Assembly (NCBI RefSeq): GCF_964019925.1
Contig: NZ_OZ026470.1
Span: 434,001 to 498,000 of the forward strand
Length of the DNA: 64,000 nucleotides
Source of the DNA: Spiroplasma endosymbiont of Cantharis nigra
Lineage (GTDB): Bacteria; Bacillota_I; Bacilli_A; Mycoplasmatales; Mycoplasmataceae
Direction of reading: 5' to 3'
A program made the translations under genes and the position numbers. Positions 48,655-64,000 of the stretch are shown here, piece after piece. The notes beneath the pieces were generated by a model. It was given only the letters and a program-made list of their open reading frames with translations, had not been told where the DNA came from and did no database searches. How positions within the stretch are numbered: the first letter of the stretch is position 1; each line of letters starts with the position of its first letter.

Positions 48655-49674
48655 TTATTCTTTTAAAACAAAAGTTTTATTGTTTAATCCTAATCAATTA
48701 TCAGATTCTTTTGTAGTGTTTCATTCTTTACCAGATTTAAATTTATTTATGAGTTCTATAAAGCCATTTAATAAATTAGGATTTTTAGGTTCTTTTTTAT
48801 TTTCACTAGTTTCTTTAATTGCTATTAAATCTTTATATAATTTTTCTTCAGGTGATAGAACTTTTCATTCCTTATTTTCTTTGCTAGGATAATGTGGATT
48901 CTCAACATTAATTCATTCTAAACTATTTGATAGATCAAATTTATTTTCAGAAGCTTCTTTAATTGCTTTTAAAATACCTTTTATAAATTTTATTGTAATA
49001 TTTTTATTTTCCTTAAAAAAAGTCAATTCAAGTTCAGGTTTATTTTTATCAATTAAATTAGACAAATCATTAAAAAAGTATTTTTCAATTTTAATTATAT
49101 TTTCAATATCTCCAAAAATACCATTTGAATCCTCAGCTTTATAAACTCCATCAGTCATTTCTGGAATATTTGTAAATTTTAATTCTAAGTATTTTTTATT
49201 AAATTCTGTTTCGGTTCCATCAGACTTTATTTCCCTATATGTAAAATAAACAGGAATTGTCTTATGTTTATTATTATCATTAAAATTTTTCTCTAAATAA
49301 GTAATAAGATCTTCTGATTCATTCTCTTCACCTATTGGAAATCCTGTATTACTTTTATAAAACTTAAATTCAATGTTATCTTCTTCAATGTTATTATCAC
49401 CAATACCAAATTTTTCATTGAATTCTTTTTGATTAGTAAAGTTATTTGCAATTATTTGTTTTATTTCAGTATTAATATTTTCTTTAGTAGTATCTTCTGC
49501 TTCAGTAGTATCTTTATTAAAAACAATTGTATTATGAGTTTTTGTTCCTCAAAATTTTTCAATATCTTTGAAACTTTTAAAAGTATTATCACTTGTTATT
49601 TTACAACTAACTATTTGAGTTGCTGGAGTAACAATTATTGATAAGCCAGTTAAAATTGTAAGTAATTTTTTCAT
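48655..49674 (-). CDS. Hypothetical lipoprotein
   Basis: A 339-aa predicted lipoprotein with signal MKKLLTILTGLSIIVTPATQ and lipobox QIVSC (Cys24). The mature part is acidic and Asn/Lys-rich, with the repeated word ENK and EWxx-type ends (KEWKVLSPEEK, KEWNTTKES). These recall the short motif repeats of Mollicute surface lipoproteins. No enzymatic motif. It shares a divergent promoter space with the 49740 gene. Confidence 0.8.
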
Positions 49675-49739
49675 TTTTTTCACCTTAATTCCCTATTATT
49701 TTACATTAATATATTATTAAATAAAGAAGAAATTTAGTG

Positions 49740-52615: not shown

Positions 52616-53377
52616 ATGAATGAACTACTATATAAAAAAATTGAAAAAATAAGTAAAAATTATATTAATGATACATTTAAAATTATTAGTCAACAAATTT
52701 TAAAAGATTTCTGAAATAATAATTTTAGAAAACAAAAGCAATTAGCAAAAATGTGTAATGTAAGTGAAGCTACAATTACAAATTTTTCAAAATCAATTTC
52801 ACTTTCTGGTTATCGTGAGCTAATTATAATTTTAAAGATGGAATATAAAAATAATTTTATTGATATTAAAACTAATAAAGTAAATAAGATTTCAGAAATA
52901 TTTACTAATTTTACAAGTTTTACAAAAGATACTGATTTTAAAATAAATTTATTTAAAAAAATTATTTTGGAAAATAATAAAGAAATTATTATAATGTCTT
53001 CTTACGAAACATTTTTCTCATCAATTTTTTTATCTGATTTATTAAATCAAAAAAATTATAAAGCTACTGTTTTTGATTTATCAAAAAGTGTAAATAATTT
53101 AAATCAATCACATTATTTTGAATATTCTTATATTTTTATTTTTACTGGTGATGAAGCCCATAGTCTTTATAACGCCTATGACTTTTTAAAAAATAAAATA
53201 GATAAAAATAATATTTTTATCTTATATACATATTTGTGAGAAAAAAACTTTGATCTTATTGATAACAAATTATTTTTAGATCAAAATTATTATGAAACAA
53301 ATATTACAGGATTAAATTTTTTTCTTATTAATTTTTTTAAATATTTTTCTACTTTAATTGATTATAAAGTTGATTAA
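52616..53377 (+). CDS. RpiR-type transcriptional regulator
   Basis: A 253-aa protein with an N-terminal helix-turn-helix like HTH_6 (KQLAKMCNVSEATITNFSKSISLSGYREL). The degenerate SIS-like C-terminal domain includes NNKEIIIMSSYE and YIFIFTGDEAHSLYN, the usual sugar-phosphate-binding region. It is similar in layout to the regulator at 60509. AGAGAAT precedes the ATG at 52616, and a -10 TATAAT is at 52575-52580. No sugar operon is directly adjacent; its target is unknown. Confidence 0.85.
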
Positions 53378-53384
53378 TAATTTA

Positions 53385-56030
53385 TTAAATTAATCTTGCT
53401 TTAACTTCAATTTTAACAACTTCTCTTGCATTATCAGCATTAACTTTAATAATTGCATCTCCTATTAGTAGAGCCTTAATTGAAATAGTATCTCCTTTAA
53501 CAGTAACTGTTATTAAACCTGAAGAACTATCTTCAACTGTGGGATTTTCTAAATCATCATAATTTAAAATTTTAACTTTTGTCATAGCACTACCTACTCT
53601 AATTTTAACTTTTGTTTTATTTACTTTTATATCTATTAATTTTTTTGTAATGTTAATATTAACTTCTATTGGATTTTTTGCATTATCAGCATTAACAATT
53701 ATTTTTGCTTCGCCTTCTGCAAGACCATCAATTAGAATATTATTATTTTCATGAGTTACTCTAATGATATTTGGATTATTACTTGTAACTGTAACATTAA
53801 TTAAACTTTCAAAATTTTCTATTTTTATTAAAACTTCATTCTCTGCTTCAATACTAATATTTGTATTATCTAATTCAATATCTATTAATTTTTTTGTAAC
53901 TATAACATTTATTTCTACAGAAGCTTTTGCATTATCAGCATTAACAATTATTTTTGTTTCACCTTCACTAACACCTGTTATTTTAATAGTTTCATTTTCA
54001 ATTATTACTTCAGCAGTTTTTAAATCCTTAGACTGAACACTTACATTATTTAGACTTTCAAAATTTTTGATTTTTATTGAAGAATTTGTTTCTCCTGACT
54101 CTAAAGTAGTATCATTATTTGATAACTCAATGTTAAATAATTTTTTTGTAACTATAACATTTATTTCAATTGGCATTATTGCATTGTCAGCATTAACAAT
54201 TATTTTTGTTTCACCTTCACTAACACCTGTTACTTTAATAATATTTTTTTCTATGATTAACAAAACAATATTTGAATTATTTGCTTCAGCATTAACATTA
54301 TTTAAATCGCTATAATTTTCTATTGTTATTAAATCACTGTCATCAACTTCCATGCTAGTAGTATTATTTGATAACTCAATGTTAAATAATTTTTTTGTAA
54401 CTATAACATTTATTTCAATTGGCATTATTGCATTGTCAGCATTAACAATTATTTTTGTTTCACCTTCTACAAGACCTGTTATTTTAATAGTTTCATTTTC
54501 AATTATTACATTAATAATTTTTTCATTATTTGCTTTAACAGAAACGTTATTTAAACTTTGATAATTTTTTATTATTATACTTGAATCAGTTTCTTGAGCT
54601 TCAACACTAACTTTATTATTTGATAGATCAATATCAAATAATTTTTTATTTACTATTACATTTATTTCAACAGCATTTTTTGCATTGTCAGCATTAACAA
54701 TTATTTTTGTTTCACCTTCACTAATACCTATTATTTTAATAGTTTCATTTTCAATTAGTACTTCAGCAACACTTGTATTTTTAGATTGAACACTAACATT
54801 ATTTAAACTTTGATAATTTTTTATTTTTATTGAAGAGTTTGTTTCTTCTGCTTCAAGACTAACTTTATTATTTGATAAATCAATATCCAATAATTGTTTA
54901 TTAACAGTTACACTTATTTCCATTGCTTCTTTTGCATTGTCAGCATTAACAATTATTTTTGTTTCACCTTCACTAATACCTATTATTTTAATAGTTTCAT
55001 TTTCAATTAGTACTTCAGCAACACTTGTATTTTTAGATTGAACACTAACATTATTTAAACCTTGATAATTTTTTATTTTTATTGAAGAGTTTGTTTCTTC
55101 TGCTTCAAGACTAACTTTATTATTTGATAAATCAATATCCAATAATTGTTTATTAACAGTTACACTTATTTCCATTGCTTCTTTTGCATTATCAGCATTA
55201 ACAATTATTTTTGTTTCACCTTCACTAACACCTGTTATTTTAATAGTTTCATTTTCAATTATTACTTCAGCAACACTTGTATTTTTAGATTGAACACTAA
55301 CATTATTTAAACTTTGATAATTTTTTATTTCTATTGAAGAGTTTGTTTCTTCTGCTTCAAGGCTAACTTTATTATCTGATAGATCAATATCCAATAATTG
55401 TTTATTAACAGTTACACTTATTTCCATTGGATTAACTACATTGTCGGCATTAACAATTATTTTTGTTTCGCCTTCTTCAATAGCAGTTATATGAATTGTT
55501 TCATTATCATTAAATACTGTTGCAATATTTTTATCTGTTGATTCTACATAAACATTATTTAATGCTAAGTAGTTTTCAATTTTTAATGAAGAATTAGTTT
55601 GCCCTACTTCAATAATTGCTTTATTATCTGATAATTCAATATTAGTTTTTTCTGGCTCTTCTGATTCATTAACTATTGCTTTAAAAGTTCATTTTTTCTC
55701 TAAGTTTGAATTTTTAGTTGACCCAACTAAAGTTAAAAAAGTTTCACCAATGCTATTTGCATTTAATTCAAATTTACCATCATCATGTATAACTTTTTCA
55801 GTAACATGTGCAATTTCCATATTACTTGAATACATTTCAAAATTTTTATGATCCTTATTGTATTCTTCTCAATCTTGAATTCAATGTCAATCCTTGTTAC
55901 CATGATTCATAATAAAATTTTGCTCTTGTACTTTTTTTTCTTTTGTACTTGGCACTGTATACATAATAATTAATAAAATAAGCCCAATGATTAGTAAAAT
56001 AATTACTAATGGTTTAAAGATTTTTCCCAT
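53385..56030 (-). CDS. Membrane-anchored surface protein with about nine Ig-like tandem repeats
   Basis: An 881-aa protein. After a basic N-terminus a single TM (about 6-25) anchors it, followed by about 110 residues with many Trp/His/Lys and then about nine repeats of 83-84 residues. Each repeat has a LxIDLSxNKVSLE strand, an IKNYQSLNNVSVQS segment and EGETKIIVNADNA, a pattern like bacterial Ig-like domain group 2 (Big_2). Three repeats (about 54720-55475) are nearly identical at DNA level. The gene probably makes a long stalk-like adhesin or spacer outside the cell. GAGGTATAAT precedes the ATG. It is convergent with the RpiR-type gene. Confidence 0.88.
53466..55475 (-). repeat. Array of eight 249-252-bp coding repeats inside the Ig-like protein
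   Basis: Eight units start with the codons for EGETKIIVNADNA (slightly changed in the two C-terminal ones). The first three (55475 down to 54720) differ from each other by few bases and look like recent tandem duplications. Identity falls toward the C-terminus. Confidence 0.85.
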
Positions 56031-56076
56031 ATTATACCTCTAAATTTTTCTATTTATATTATAATATTTAGAAAAG

Positions 56077-56109
56077 TTAAAGTACTTTAATAAAGTTAAA
56101 GTACTTTAA
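56077..56109. promoter_or_regulatory. Two 14-bp palindromes in direct repeat, upstream of the Ig-repeat gene
   Basis: TTAAAGTACTTTAA at 56077-56090 and again at 56096-56109, inside two exact copies of a 19-bp unit (56073-56091 and 56092-56110). A TATAAT for the Ig-repeat gene lies between the palindromes and its ATG. Two equally spaced dyads suggest binding sites for a dimeric regulator, possibly cooperative. Confidence 0.65.
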
Positions 56110-56151
56110 TAATTGACTAATAAAATAATTAATAGATTTTTTTAGAGTGAT

Positions 56152-56457
56152 TTAAATATTTAAATTATTTATTTTTTTAAAATTAAAACTAATTCATAAT
56201 AAAAAATAAATTATATCTACAATTATAAAACCAAAATTGATTCCGATATTAACTCCTCACGAAGAAGTTCATATTAAAAAAGTAAAAACATAGAGAAGAA
56301 TAATTCATATAATATTTAATAATGCCATATTAATATATATAATTTTAAATATTTTCTTTGTGTCTTTTTTAAAGTAATTTCCAACTGAAAAATATATAAA
56401 AAAAATGGAAATAAAGTTTAGAGTAATAAATTGAATAATTTCAAAAGTTGATCACAT
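56152..56457 (-). CDS. Small hypothetical membrane protein coupled to the deacetylase
   Basis: A 101-aa protein with three hydrophobic segments (about 6-25, 42-62, 68-93) and five TGA Trp codons, so it is invisible to a standard-code search. Its ATG (56457-56455) overlaps the deacetylase stop codon as TAATG, indicating coupled translation. A GGAGG sits 11 bases ahead inside the deacetylase gene. No family recognised; it may anchor or assist the deacetylase. Confidence 0.72.
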
Positions 56458-57206
56458 TAGAAAATTAAACCTCCATAATTCTTATAGTAATGTTCCCCAC
56501 TACTAAAATTAGCTGTTTTATAATTATTTTCAGCTAAATATAATAATAAATCTGGAAGCCATTCTTTTGCATAATCTCTTGTATGACAAACTAATATTTG
56601 TCCAGGTTTGATATTTTTTTTATATTGCTTTAGAATTTTATTTTTTCCACAAATACTTTCATTGTAATCACATCCTAAATAACCTCTAACAAAGTAGTCA
56701 ATTTTCATTTTGCTTTTAATATAATCCATACCTCTATAATATTGAAGATATGGCATTCTTACTGGAATGTCACTAATATTTTTTTCTATATTATTCTCTT
56801 GATAAATTTTAGCTATCATTTCACTAGTTTGATAAAATTCATTAAAACCCTCTTTTGTTTTAAATTGATAATTATTATGATTATAGGAATGATTTCCTAA
56901 TGAATGACCCTCATTAATAATTCTTTTGACAATCATTTCAATTTTTTTATCTGTTCAATACTTTTCATAATTTATTCCTGTTCCAAAAAAAGTTGCCTTG
57001 GCATCATTTTCTTTTAAAATATCTAATATTGTTTCATCTTCAAAACCAGGGCCATCATCAAAAGTTAACATAACAATTTTTTCTTTTGTATTTATTCTAT
57101 TTACTTCATAATTAACTTTTGGAGTTGAAAAATTAAAAATAATAGAAAAAAGTAAAATTAATAATAGAAAAATATGCAATATGTTTTTAAATTTAATTTT
57201 TTTCAT
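56457..57206 (-). CDS. Polysaccharide deacetylase (NodB domain), membrane-anchored
   Basis: A 249-aa protein with an N-terminal anchor (about 9-27) and an outer NodB/carbohydrate esterase 4 domain. The motifs are complete: TFDDGP (Asp50, Asp51), the metal motif HSYNH in GHSLGNHSYNHN, VRMPY (R-x-P-[FY]), GYLGCDYN, and a late ILVCHTRD block. It would remove N-acetyl groups from an amino-sugar polymer. Mollicutes have no peptidoglycan, so the substrate must be another glycan (own capsule or host). It follows the PTS operon after a terminator and is coupled to the 101-aa protein. Confidence 0.9.
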
Positions 57207-57243
57207 ATATTTTCTCCTAGTAAAAATATTTTAAATTAAATTA

Positions 57244-57278
57244 AAAAAATGTTCCACATTTAATAGGACATTTTTTTA
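57244..57278 (-). terminator. Terminator between the PTS operon and the deacetylase gene
   Basis: A hairpin of AAATGT-(T)-CC with GGACATTT, flanked by A and T runs. On the minus strand it follows the PTS stop at 57303. Confidence 0.65.
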
Positions 57279-57302
57279 ATTTATATTACTAATAAGTTAC
57301 TA

Positions 57303-59021
57303 TTATAATTTATTAGTAACTCCATTATTTCTTTTTTCTAATAAAATTCGTTGTTTTAAAGTTTTTTTAGATTCCCTTTCTTTTTTGATTATTTCTTTAA
57401 ATTCTGTCTTAGATATTAATTTTAATTCATTTAAATCTTCATTATATTCTTCTAATAGAAGATCACGAGTTCTCTCTTGAAAGAATTTAATTTTTCCTAA
57501 TAATAAAGTCATTATAAAAGTTACAGTACAACTAATTGTAATTGAAATTCCACCTCAAAGAAATCCACCTCCCATTCAAGTAGTAACGCCAGTTGCACTT
57601 GGTGCTTTATGTTGGAACATTAAGAAACCAAATATTGAACTTGCTCCTTGTAAGGCAAAAGTATTAGAAGCAACAAGAATTAAACTTCCGCAAAATACTC
57701 CGATTGAACATGCAATTAAAGGATATAAATGTTTCAAATTTACTGTAAATAAAGATGGTTCTGTAATTCCCCCAACAATAGCAGAAACTCCATTTGAGAC
57801 ACCCAATTCTTTTAATTGTCTTACTCTTTTATTTAATATTACAAAAGCTATTGTAGCTACACCTTGGGATACATTTGATAATGTACATAAACCCTGAATA
57901 ATAGTTGCTCCATAAGCTGATTGACCTTGTAATATAATTGGAGTTAAAGAATGATGTAAACCTGTTATTACAAGAGGACCATATAGTGCTCCCAAAAGTG
58001 GTAAAGCAATATATTTTGCAATTCCATTTGTACTTAATCAATTAACTGAAATTGATAAATAATTTGTAAATAATAATCCAATTGGAGCCACAATAAATAT
58101 TGCAAATATAAATGTTACACCTATTATAAGAATTGGACTTAAAATATTTTTAGTAGTAGTGTTAGATATTTTAGAAGTTCATCTTTCCATATAAGCTCCA
58201 AAAATAGCTACACCAATCATTGGTACCATTAATCCATTGAAGTTTATTTTTCATGGATATACTATTCCTTTACCAAATAATGTTCATCCAGGATATTGTG
58301 ACAAAATAGTTTGTCCTTCTTGAACTTCAACAACTCCCATTGTTACTAATCCTGGAGCTGTCAATACAACTCCAATAAGTATTCCATAAATTGAACTACA
58401 TCTCATTGCTTTAAAAACAGTGTAACTAACTGCTATTGTAATAAATAGTGAAAAAGTACTAGTTAAAATATCAAGAATACTTGCAAATTGACCAAAGAAA
58501 TGAACACTATTGGCTAATGAAGTTCCATCTCCATTTCATTCAACGGTCATTAGTGATCAAATTGTTAATAATAGCCCATAACCAATTAAGGGATATACTA
58601 TTGGTGAAAATACCTTACTAATAAAAGAAAGACATTTATTGGTAAACCCTTTAACTCTAAATTTACCTTTAATTTGTTTTATCTCTTCAAGTTGTTTTGT
58701 TTTAAAATCAGTATCCTTTGAATTAGTTGATTTTAATAATAAAGTTCTACCATCAAGGTCATAACCATTTATTTCACAAAATGTTTCATAAAATTCAGCA
58801 ACGTCCATACCAATTATAATTTGGTATTCATCACCACCTTCATTTTTTTTGATTCCTGTTACAGCTTCACTGGATTTTAATTTTTCTTCATCAATTACTT
58901 TCCAATCTTTTAAATGAAATCTCATTCTTGTCATACAGTGAGTAAAGTAATTTATATTTCCATAGCCACCTAAGTATTGAAAAATATCTTGAACTGATTG
59001 AATATATTTCTTCTTAATCAT
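57303..59021 (-). CDS. PTS EIIBC permease, glucose-glucoside (beta-glucoside/trehalose-like) family
   Basis: A 572-aa sugar transporter. The EIIB domain has the phosphorylated Cys29 in HCMTRMRF, typical of the glucoside family. The EIIC membrane domain (about 115-480) has ALYGPLVITGLHHSLTPI and GGITEPSLFTVNL. No EIIA domain is fused; the C-terminal tail is charged and helical instead. It starts 5 bp after the GH1 gene, so the pair imports and cleaves a phosphorylated glucoside. AAGGATAATTAAG precedes the ATG. Confidence 0.92.
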
Positions 59022-59026
59022 CTTAA

Positions 59027-60388
59027 TTATCCTTCCTTATTTTCAATTAATTTTTTATATCAAAAAGCTGATTTTTTAAATTTTCTGCTTTGATCTTTTA
59101 AATTAACTTCAATTAAGCCATATCTATTTTTAAAAGCATTTCTAAAACTTCAGCAATCCAAGGCAGCTCAAATATGATAGCCAAAACAATTTGAACCATT
59201 ATCAATTGCTCTTTTGATTTGAATAAGATGATCTTCTAAAAATTCAATTCGATAATCATCATTTATTATTCCTTGTTCATCTCTAAATCTATCTTCATTT
59301 TCAACACCCATTCCATTTTCTGCAATATATCAAGCAATATTGTTATATTTTTCTTTAATCTCCATCCCAATTTCATAAAGAGCTTCAGGATATATTTCTC
59401 ATCCTCTATAAGGATTTATTTTAGCTTCCTTTGGAATATCAATAATAAAATTATCCATAATTCATCTTTCCTTGTGATTACTTTGAACTTTTACTCTACA
59501 AGGGAAATAATAATTTATTCCTAGAAAATCTATTTTAGTTTGTTTAATTATTGCTAATTCCTCATGACTATAACTAGGTAAAATTGAATATTGCTTCAAA
59601 GTTTTTACTAAAATGGGGTCAATTACACCATTAAACATAATATTTAAAGGTCCCCTATTAACATATGCATCATAAATTTTTGCCCCTTCTTGATCTTCAT
59701 CAGAATTAGAAAAAGCATAGGTATAATTTCAATTAAAAACTAATCCAATTTGAGCTTTTAAACTATATTTTCTAAAAACTAATAGTACTTTGGAATGAGC
59801 TAAAAATATTCCATATGCTTGCTGTACAGCTTGTTTAGGGTCATCCAAAGCAGGATAATGTTTATCATTTAAATAACCTTCATATACAGGAACTAAAGGC
59901 TCATTAAATGTCACATAAGAGTCAACACTATCTTGATACTCTTGAAAAATAAATTCACAATATTGAACAAAAGATTCAATTACTTCTCTTGAAGCTCACC
60001 CTCCTTTTTGATGGGCTCAAAGTGGCATATCAAAGTGAAATAAAGTCATAATTATTTTGATGTTATTTTTTTTATATTCATTAATATAATCGTGATAAAA
60101 CTTCACTGCTTGTGAATCAAGTGTTTTACCATCTGGAAATAATCTTGCTCAAGAAAATCCCGTTCTTAATGAATCAAAACCAATCTCTTTAAACATTTTG
60201 ATATCTTCTTTATAATGTCTTGTAATATCACATGTTACATTAGGTCCAACATTATTATGAAATAACTCAGGGCTTTCTTGATAATATTTATCAAAAGCTA
60301 AATCACCAATCTTTGTGATACCCTTTCCTTCAGTTTGCAGTGCACTCATGGATGCTCCTATTTCAAATTTTTTTGAAAACTTAATCAT
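59027..60388 (-). CDS. GH1 6-phospho-beta-glucosidase
   Basis: A 453-aa glycoside hydrolase family 1 enzyme cleaving phosphorylated beta-glucosides delivered by the PTS gene next to it. The acid/base Glu163 is in TFNEP and the nucleophile in YIAENGMG. The phosphate-side region near WAALDCWSFRNAFKNRYGLI ends with SAFWYKKLI. The N-terminal FEIGASMSALQTEG replaces the usual F.WG.a.Aa.QiEG. A normal length. AGGTAAG precedes the ATG. Confidence 0.93.
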
Positions 60389-60408
60389 TTTTACTTACCT
60401 CCAAATTA

Positions 60409-60425
60409 ATTCTATTAAATAGAAT
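60409..60425. promoter_or_regulatory. 17-bp inverted repeat, candidate operator of the PTS/GH1 operon
   Basis: ATTCTATT-A-AATAGAAT in the 120-bp divergent space between the GH1 gene (-) and the RpiR-type regulator (+). Confidence 0.5.
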
Positions 60426-60508
60426 ATTTTTTTACAATAAATTATATTAATGGAGAATTTTTTTGGAAAATCAAAAAAACTTTGTTAATATATATCTAGG
60501 AGATAAAT

Positions 60509-61261
60509 ATGTTCAAAAGCATTAAAGAAAAATTGATATTAATAAAAGCCAACCTTGAAAATCAAACCCATGTTTCAATTGCTAATTATTTACTTGACTG
60601 TATTGAAAATAAAAAAACGCCTAAAATTAATGAATGTTCAAAACAAAGTTTTTGTTCTGAATCTGTCATTACAGCGTTTGCAAAAAAATATGGTTATGAT
60701 GGTTTTAAGGAACTGGCAATAAGAATTAAAGTTGAAACTGAATATTATAACTGAACAACTTTAACAATTAATAATGAAAATAATAACAATTCCTATAGAA
60801 ATTTAATCAATAAATCCATTGATTTAATCGATTCACAAGAAAACAAAATAATAGATCTTGTTAACTCTATTAAAAAAACAAAAAATACTTATGCTATAAG
60901 TTGTTACCAACAATTATTTAATACAGAATTGTTTATAAGTGAATTAAATCTATTAGGTTATAATGCTCATTTTAATTATCAAAGAAAATTAAATGAAACT
61001 TGAGTTAATAGAGTAACATCTGAAGATACTTTCATAATAGTTGCTTTTGGTTTGGATAATCAATATGTAATTAATTTTTATAATTTACTTAAAAACAAGA
61101 CTGACAATATTTTTATTATATGTTCACCATCACAAGAACATAAATTTGACAAGTATAGTCAAATAATAATTATTGACTATTATGAACGCACTACATTTTT
61201 GGAATCAACAAGAAGTTCCTTAATTATGTATCTTATGAGTTTTATAGTCTATAAACTATAA
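60509..61261 (+). CDS. RpiR-type transcriptional regulator of the glucoside operon
   Basis: A 250-aa protein: N-terminal HTH_6-type domain (SIANYLLDCIENKK; CSKQSFCSESVITAFAKKYGYDGFKEL) and a SIS-like C-terminal domain (TFIIVAFGLDNQYVINFYN). Divergent from the GH1/PTS operon, with a 17-bp dyad between, so most likely its sugar-phosphate-responsive regulator. AGGAGA precedes the ATG. Confidence 0.88.
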
Positions 61262-63327: not shown

Positions 63328-64000
63328 TTATAAAGTAATTGCATTTAATGCAATTACTTTTATTTTGTTTCAATTATTAAAGTATTCATAAGATGGAGGG
63401 TTAGAAGTTTTAACTCGTATTCTTTCATAATTATAGAAGTGAATATATTTACTAATAGAGCTTTCCAATTTTTCAAAAGAGTTTACTTTTAACTCTTTTT
63501 TTCATTCCTCTTTTAATGAAGAAAAAAATGTTTCACACATTGCATTATCTATTGAATTTCCAGGTCTTGATAAAGAAATAATTATATTATTCTTTTTTGA
63601 ATAGTTTTTTGCAAAAAATGATGTATATTGAGAACCATTATCAGAGTGAATTATAAGCGATTTACTTATGTCATTTCTATATTTTGTTGAATTAATAAGA
63701 GTATCTCTATAAATTTTTATATCATTTATTTTAGACAATTTATAACCAACTATAAATCCTGTCTTAACATCCTTTAAAATACTAAGATAAGCAAATTTAT
63801 TATTTAATGGTAAATAAGTAATGTCAGTCACTCAGCATTCATTCTTCTCATAAATTTCTCATTTTCTATTAACAATATTGGGTCCATGAGTAATACTTTT
63901 CTTTTCCTTAGGTTTTCTAATCATCTTTTTAACTCTAATTACTGAATACATCTTATATATTCTCATTATTCTTGCTACTTTATTTTGACTAATCTTTATT
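63328..64000 (-). CDS. IS3-family transposase OrfB (DDE integrase core), 5' truncated by window edge
   Basis: At least 223 aa are visible. The catalytic triad is in order: Asp in WVTDITYLPL, Asp in HSDNGSQYTS, Glu in MCETFFSSLKEEW. The family block SLSRPGNSIDNA stands between the second and third. It resembles IS150/IS1138-type OrfB. The chain ends at the TAA 63328, inside a hairpin. Two-frame arrangement with an upstream OrfA is expected outside the window. Confidence 0.93.
63332..63364 (+). terminator. Hairpin within the transposase 3' end, terminator-like on the plus strand
   Basis: AAAGTAATTGCAT (63332-63344) / ATGCAATTACTTT (63348-63360), TTTTATTTTG after it. It would end plsY transcription entering the IS and overlaps the transposase C-terminus. 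Confidence 0.7.

What the first reader, a model, noticed from the sequence alone, without database searches (positions are those of the whole stretch)
53385..56110. Ig-repeat surface protein with nearly identical tandem repeats behind a double palindrome
Three 252-bp units (54720-55475) are almost the same at DNA level, while C-terminal units have diverged, a sign of ongoing duplication. Such arrays change copy number by recombination, giving length-variable surface proteins. The promoter region carries two 14-bp dyads (TTAAAGTACTTTAA) in 19-bp direct repeat, so expression may be regulated as well. Together this could be a size-variable, switchable host-contact system.
Basis: partly seen in the sequence, partly recalled or inferred. 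Interest (0 to 1): 0.68.

Follow-up and report, generated by a model that had tools for sequence, protein, structure and literature searches.

The report
Fixed-length Ig-repeat surface rod, Spiroplasma
A wall-less insect-associated bacterium (Spiroplasma) makes a membrane-anchored surface rod of nine immunoglobulin-like domains whose middle domains are kept alike by DNA exchange while the number of domains stays at nine in four species, and whose promoter carries a lineage-specific paired palindrome shared, as a single copy, with one other exported-protein gene; so it looks regulated, but not size-variable as first proposed.

Summary
Window 53385-56030 (minus, genetic code 4) encodes an 881-aa protein: N-terminal membrane anchor, one N-terminal domain, nine 84-aa Big_2 Ig domains (U1-U9). 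U2-U4 are 92-96% identical in DNA; the promoter has two perfect 14-bp palindromes 19 bp apart. Size variation is not supported. U2-U4 evolve in concert: nine fixed differences between sister species are shared by all three units and no variant is kept across species. That suggests intragenic gene conversion at constant copy number. Constraint is strongest at the N-terminal domain and distal unit U9, weak in the stalk. The paired dyad is perfectly conserved in three species and absent from 295 other genomes of the order; a single dyad is conserved before a second exported-protein gene in the same three species. This points to a small surface-protein regulon; a neighbouring RpiR-type gene is a plausible, unproven regulator. 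Ordinary kind (BIg_2 stalk); the fixed length with homogenised core and the dyad regulon are the new parts. Within-species copy number could not be tested.

The parts
53385..56030 (-). CDS of the 881-aa Big_2 repeat protein (code 4; four TGA=Trp)
   Evidence: Pfam PF02368 91 bits vs cut-off 22.8
55956..56009 (-). approximate N-terminal transmembrane anchor (aa ~8-25), no cysteine anywhere in the protein
   Evidence: hydropathy; sequence
55644..55916 (-). N-terminal (membrane-proximal) domain, aa 39-129, strongly conserved (dN/dS 0.07-0.20), weak resemblance to a tenth Ig unit
55389..55640 (-). Ig repeat U1 (keeps its orthology to U1 of the relatives)
55137..55388 (-). Ig repeat U2, member of the homogenised trio
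54885..55136 (-). Ig repeat U3, member of the homogenised trio; AlphaFold model pLDDT 95
54633..54884 (-). Ig repeat U4; first ~200 nt copy of U3, last ~50 nt of another type (mosaic)
54381..54632 (-). Ig repeat U5
54132..54380 (-). Ig repeat U6
53880..54131 (-). Ig repeat U7
53631..53879 (-). Ig repeat U8
53388..53630 (-). Ig repeat U9, distal tip; most divergent in sequence from the other units but most conserved between species (dN/dS 0.07-0.34)
56077..56090 (.). gene-proximal 14-bp dyad, 13 bp upstream of the -10, over the -35 position
56096..56109 (.). gene-distal 14-bp dyad, 19 bp further upstream
56058..56063 (-). putative -10 TATAAT, nearly invariant in three species; no good -35 hexamer
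   Evidence: sequence; alignment
56036..56041 (-). putative ribosome-binding site AGAGGT
   Evidence: sequence
52616..53377 (+). RpiR-type regulator (HTH_6), convergent neighbour, close orthologues only in the three species that have the dyads; candidate regulator
56152..56457 (-). 101-aa membrane protein next upstream, fast-evolving, no family
56457..57206 (-). polysaccharide deacetylase, overlaps the 101-aa gene; widespread in the genus, not tied to the Big_2 gene
57303..60388 (-). PTS IIBC and GH1 glucosidase genes of the same syntenic block

Best explanation
The gene encodes a single-chain surface rod held by an N-terminal membrane helix (type II-like, C-terminus outside), with about ten Ig-like domains in a row and the conserved U9 at the tip. 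Rod length is held constant by selection; the middle units U2-U4 exchange sequence by gene conversion (or balanced unequal exchange), which keeps them alike within a species and lets the stalk drift as a block between species. Most likely role: display or spacing of the tip for contact with host tissue or other cells. Transcription is set by a dimeric DNA-binding protein that occupies two adjacent palindromes over the -35 region; the same protein controls at least one other exported protein. The convergent RpiR-type gene 52616-53377 is the leading but unproven candidate. Shown: gene anatomy, predicted fold of the unit, constant number in four species, concerted evolution, conservation of the dyads. 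Inferred: outward topology, rod shape, gene conversion as the mechanism, adhesion or display, operator function, regulator.
For: Nine units in own, G009, G001 and G019 by profile search; CDS 2646 bp in three. U2-U4: within-species identity 92-98%, between species 90-92%; other units show the reverse; nine fixed differences shared by all three units, no trans-species unit variants, species-wise clustering in the tree apart from own U4; mosaic U4, 200/201 then 40/51 matches to U3. dN/dS low at N-domain and U9, 0.3-0.98 in U1-U8. Dyad pair invariant while its 5-bp spacer and the upstream sequence vary; 3/298 genomes; second gene with conserved dyad in all three. RpiR orthologue (80-93% identity) only in the same three, next best 36%. 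Fold: SbsC, Big_2-CBM56 and LigB12 Ig domains.
Against: Only one genome per species was available, so within-species variation is untested. Own and G009 have exact repeats of 131-141 bp, so a short-read assembly could have lost a copy; G001 (longest 57 bp) is safe. Constant number could be inertia rather than selection, at least over the short own-G009 split. No ligand, tip function, expression or binding data. The RpiR link rests only on position and co-occurrence; own has 11 RpiR-type matches. No dyad-like site with 2 or fewer mismatches precedes the RpiR gene itself.
Confidence: 0.6

Rival explanations
1. Size-variable, switchable contact protein: repeats expand and contract by recombination within populations.
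For: Near-identical neighbouring units of 252 bp are the substrate for such changes; a Big_2 lipoprotein in S. monobiae has four 258-bp repeats, three of them 98% identical, so arrays do expand in the genus; the Periscope class is defined on such proteins (PMC9704523).
Against: Nine units in all four homologues including one at 40% identity; unit register (U1, U5, U8, U9) preserved since the split from S. cantharicola.
Confidence: 0.12
2. Unequal crossing-over with selection for nine units: the trio was duplicated and deleted repeatedly and only nine-unit alleles survive, instead of gene conversion.
For: Also yields within-species identity at constant number; the three homogenised units are adjacent.
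Against: Requires balanced gains and losses in two sister species with identical outcome; own U4 is a mosaic with an abrupt boundary near its 3' end, simpler by conversion.
Confidence: 0.25
3. Not a host adhesin but a structural or spacing element of the cell surface (S-layer-like, cell-cell or envelope scaffold).
For: Best PDB matches of the unit are S-layer Ig domains (SbsC); fixed length and a conserved base fit a spacer; no recognisable binding domain.
Against: No close homologue in most of the genus, so dispensable; elevated dN/dS in the stalk suits an exposed surface.
Confidence: 0.3
4. The dyads are not operators but a recombination or template-switching hotspot, or part of an RNA structure.
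For: The 5-bp spacer reads CTTTA in own and TAAAG in G009, exact reverse complements; paired palindromes can extrude.
Against: They lie upstream of the -10, so are not in the main transcript; a single dyad is conserved at a second promoter without a partner.
Confidence: 0.08

Closest known systems
Periscope Proteins (PMC9704523)
   Same: Single chain, tandem domains over 50 aa with highly similar DNA, stalk plus putative tip.
   Different: Copy number constant in four species; anchored by an N-terminal membrane helix in a wall-less cell, tip at the C-terminus; no cell-wall sorting signal.
Leptospira LigA/LigB (PMC7821625)
   Same: Tandem ~90-aa Big_2 domains on the surface; gene conversion is inferred there between ligA and ligB; unit fold matches LigB12 (PDB 2mog).
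   Different: Exchange here is inside one gene; no cysteine, so not a lipoprotein; nine domains.
ScARP/SARP1 adhesins of Spiroplasma citri (PMC3485318)
   Same: Repeat-bearing surface proteins of the same genus; the repeat domain of ScARP3d mediates entry into vector cells.
   Different: Those repeats are 38-42 aa, with N-terminal signal peptide and C-terminal membrane segment; here 84-aa Ig units and N-terminal anchor.
Phytoplasma variable membrane proteins VmpA/Vmp1 (PMC4392738)
   Same: Mollicute surface proteins with tandem repeats.
   Different: Signal sequence and C-terminal membrane segment; described as variable.
SbsC S-layer protein Ig domains
   Same: Closest solved fold of one unit (TM about 0.75, 23% identity).
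   Different: SbsC belongs to a wall-associated S-layer; this protein has a membrane anchor instead.

Membership tests
Bacterial Ig-like group 2 (Pfam PF02368) | Match above gathering score and Ig-like beta-sandwich | tested here: met
   91.2 bits vs 22.8; model pLDDT 95, seven strands, bacterial Ig matches
Periscope Proteins | Tandem domains over 50 aa with highly identical coding sequence | tested here: met
   U2-U4 92-96% DNA identity; the other units are only 50-84%
Periscope Proteins | Repeat number varies between closely related strains | tested here: inconclusive
   No variation across three close species and one distant homologue; strains of one species not available
Periscope Proteins | Rod-like monomer in solution | not testable with these tools
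   Three-unit model had low confidence (pLDDT 51)
Leptospiral Lig proteins | Lipoprotein anchor | tested here: not met
   No cysteine in the protein; only the S. floricola homologue has one, at residue 24
Spiroplasma ScARP/sarpin adhesins | 38-42-aa sarpin repeats and C-terminal membrane segment | tested here: not met
   84-aa Big_2 units, hydrophobic segment only at the N-terminus
Phase-variable mycoplasma surface proteins | Simple-repeat tract or invertible promoter controlling on/off state | tested here: not met
   No such tract in the promoter; no promoter-bearing inverted segment; only a 5-bp spacer differs in direction
RpiR-controlled regulon | RpiR protein binds the palindrome | not testable with these tools
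   Only position and co-occurrence

The most novel reading that the evidence does not exclude
A length-locked surface rod: selection fixes the number of Ig units while gene conversion in the mid-stalk lets three exposed domains change together between species, under a dedicated two-dyad operator and a lineage-specific regulator that also drives a second exported protein.
Probability: 0.3. Interest if true: 0.55.

Novelty: new member of a known kind. Interest (0 to 1): 0.4.

Why it matters
Highly alike tandem repeats in surface proteins are usually read as a sign of size variation. Here they coexist with a constant count across species, so repeat identity alone does not predict size variation; comparing orthologues separates the two. 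The dyad gives a concrete, testable cis-element for a small surface-protein regulon in Spiroplasma, where S. citri surface-protein genes are known to respond to the host environment (PMC4804543).

Tried and rejected
Named relatives through genome contigs: two scans found no Spiroplasma; names were inferred from published genome sizes instead. Rfam and tRNA scans of the window: nothing. A third exact dyad in S. cantharicola, downstream of frr, was rejected as a shared site because the relatives lack it. Most one-mismatch sites lie inside ORFs or are not shared. A functional tie to the polysaccharide deacetylase was rejected: it is genus-wide and unlinked in S. floricola. Three-unit structure model: too weak to use for inter-domain angles, so its fold matches are not used. 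Literature for the exact dyad: 32 papers hold one of three dyad strings; the 20 listed hold only the shorter 11-mers, none the 14-mer, and none looked relevant by title. Paper searches for Spiroplasma with Ig-like domains: nothing relevant.

Full report
What is there. The window comes from a 1,237,520-bp single-contig genome that reads TGA as tryptophan. By sequence it is a Spiroplasma close to S. cantharicola: relative G001 has the published genome size of S. cantharicola (1,179,577 bp), G019 that of S. floricola (1,284,130) and G008 that of S. monobiae (891,575) (PMC4616193, PMC5908944, PMC5940939). These names are inferred from exact size. The species of the window and of its sister G009 are not named.

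The gene 53385-56030 (minus) encodes 881 aa without cysteine: a hydrophobic helix at the N-terminus, a conserved N-terminal domain, and nine Ig-like units of 81-84 aa up to the last residue. Pfam gives Big_2 at 3.9e-26. One unit modelled from the window's own nine repeats reaches pLDDT 95 with seven strands and matches S-layer protein SbsC Ig domains, a Big_2-CBM56 protein and LigB12. A three-unit model was poor (pLDDT 51), so no claim is made on the rod's shape beyond analogy.

Repeats. Within the gene U2-U4 are 92-96% identical, other pairs 50-84%. Orthologues in G009 (88% aa) and S. cantharicola (70%) sit in the same gene order and are 2646 bp each; the S. floricola homologue (40%) lies elsewhere, has a cysteine at residue 24 that looks like a lipoprotein site, and again has nine units.

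Concerted evolution. For U1 and U5-U9, own and G009 orthologues are the closest pairs (92-95%; paralogues at most 84%). For U2-U4 the order is reversed: paralogues within a species are 92-98%, same-position orthologues 90-91%. Nine sites are fixed for different bases in all three units of the two species, and no unit-specific variant is shared across species. Without exchange this would need some 27 parallel changes. Own U4 copies U3 over its first ~200 nt (200/201), then changes type (40/51), while G009 U4 does not. This is what conversion tracts look like; balanced unequal exchange cannot be excluded. In S. floricola units U1-U8 group with each other rather than with their counterparts (U9 was left out of that tree), so either old homogenisation or separate amplification to the same number.

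Constraint. dN/dS is 0.07-0.20 in the N-terminal domain and 0.07-0.34 in U9, but 0.32-0.98 in U1-U8. A conserved base, a conserved tip and a fast-changing stalk is the reading offered; that U9 is the functional end is inference.

Promoter. The gene strand reads dyad - 5 bp - dyad - 13 bp - TATAAT. Both dyads and the TATAAT are invariant in three species while the spacer and the sequence further upstream vary. The exact pair occurs in 3 of 298 genomes of the order, always here; the single 14-mer occurs 0-4 times per Spiroplasma genome. A second gene, encoding a 524-aa exported protein without a known domain, has the dyad about 113-128 bp before its start in all three species (13 of 14 bases in G009) amid poorly conserved sequence. 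Two promoters of surface or exported proteins sharing a conserved palindrome is good evidence for a regulatory site. The proximal dyad covers the place of a -35 hexamer, which fits either repression or activation from an overlapping site.

Regulator. The RpiR-type gene, whose stop lies 7 bp from the stop of the repeat gene, is convergent and has close orthologues only in the three species with the dyads (80-93%; next 36%). That is suggestive only; own has eleven RpiR-type matches.

Neighbourhood. The block from the RpiR gene to a second RpiR gene (52616-61261: RpiR, Big_2, 101-aa membrane protein, deacetylase, PTS, GH1, RpiR) is syntenic in three species and missing from S. monobiae, where the flanking genes adjoin. 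The deacetylase is found in many Spiroplasma and is not linked to the Big_2 gene in S. floricola.

Known kinds. It is a BIg_2 surface stalk. It meets the repeat-identity criterion of Periscope Proteins (PMC9704523) but shows no length variation at the level that could be tested. It fails the anchor criteria of Lig proteins and ScARPs. Gene conversion is already proposed between ligA and ligB (PMC7821625), so the process is not new; the combination with an invariant count is the point of interest.

Limits. One genome per species; possible collapse of repeats in own and G009, where exact repeats run to 131-141 bp; no expression, binding or localisation data.

Noticed in passing
window 56091-56095: The 5-bp spacer between the dyads reads CTTTA on the gene strand in own, TAAAG in G009 (exact reverse complement) and GTAAG in S. 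cantharicola; since each arm is a palindrome, the 33-bp element looks flipped between sister species.
   Followed up: partly
L034:6466-8163: S. monobiae has a different Big_2 lipoprotein with four 258-bp repeats, three of them 98% identical: a better candidate for current copy-number change.
   Followed up: partly
window 52616-61261: Seven-gene block between two RpiR-type genes is absent from S. monobiae with the flanking genes adjoining; gain or loss not resolved.
   Followed up: partly
L035:12815-14389: Second dyad gene: 524-aa exported protein with a conserved G-rich leader before its start in three species; homologue at 35% in G006 and a partial one in S. monobiae.
   Followed up: partly
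L035:4685-7480: Lipoprotein with a C-terminal GH18 chitinase-like domain about 5 kb from the second dyad gene.
   Followed up: no
window 48655-49683: Lipoprotein-like gene, 92% identical to G009 but 55% to S. cantharicola, diverging faster than its neighbours.
   Followed up: no
window 63328-63966: Integrase-core transposase-like gene at the window end, next to the syntenic block.
   Followed up: no
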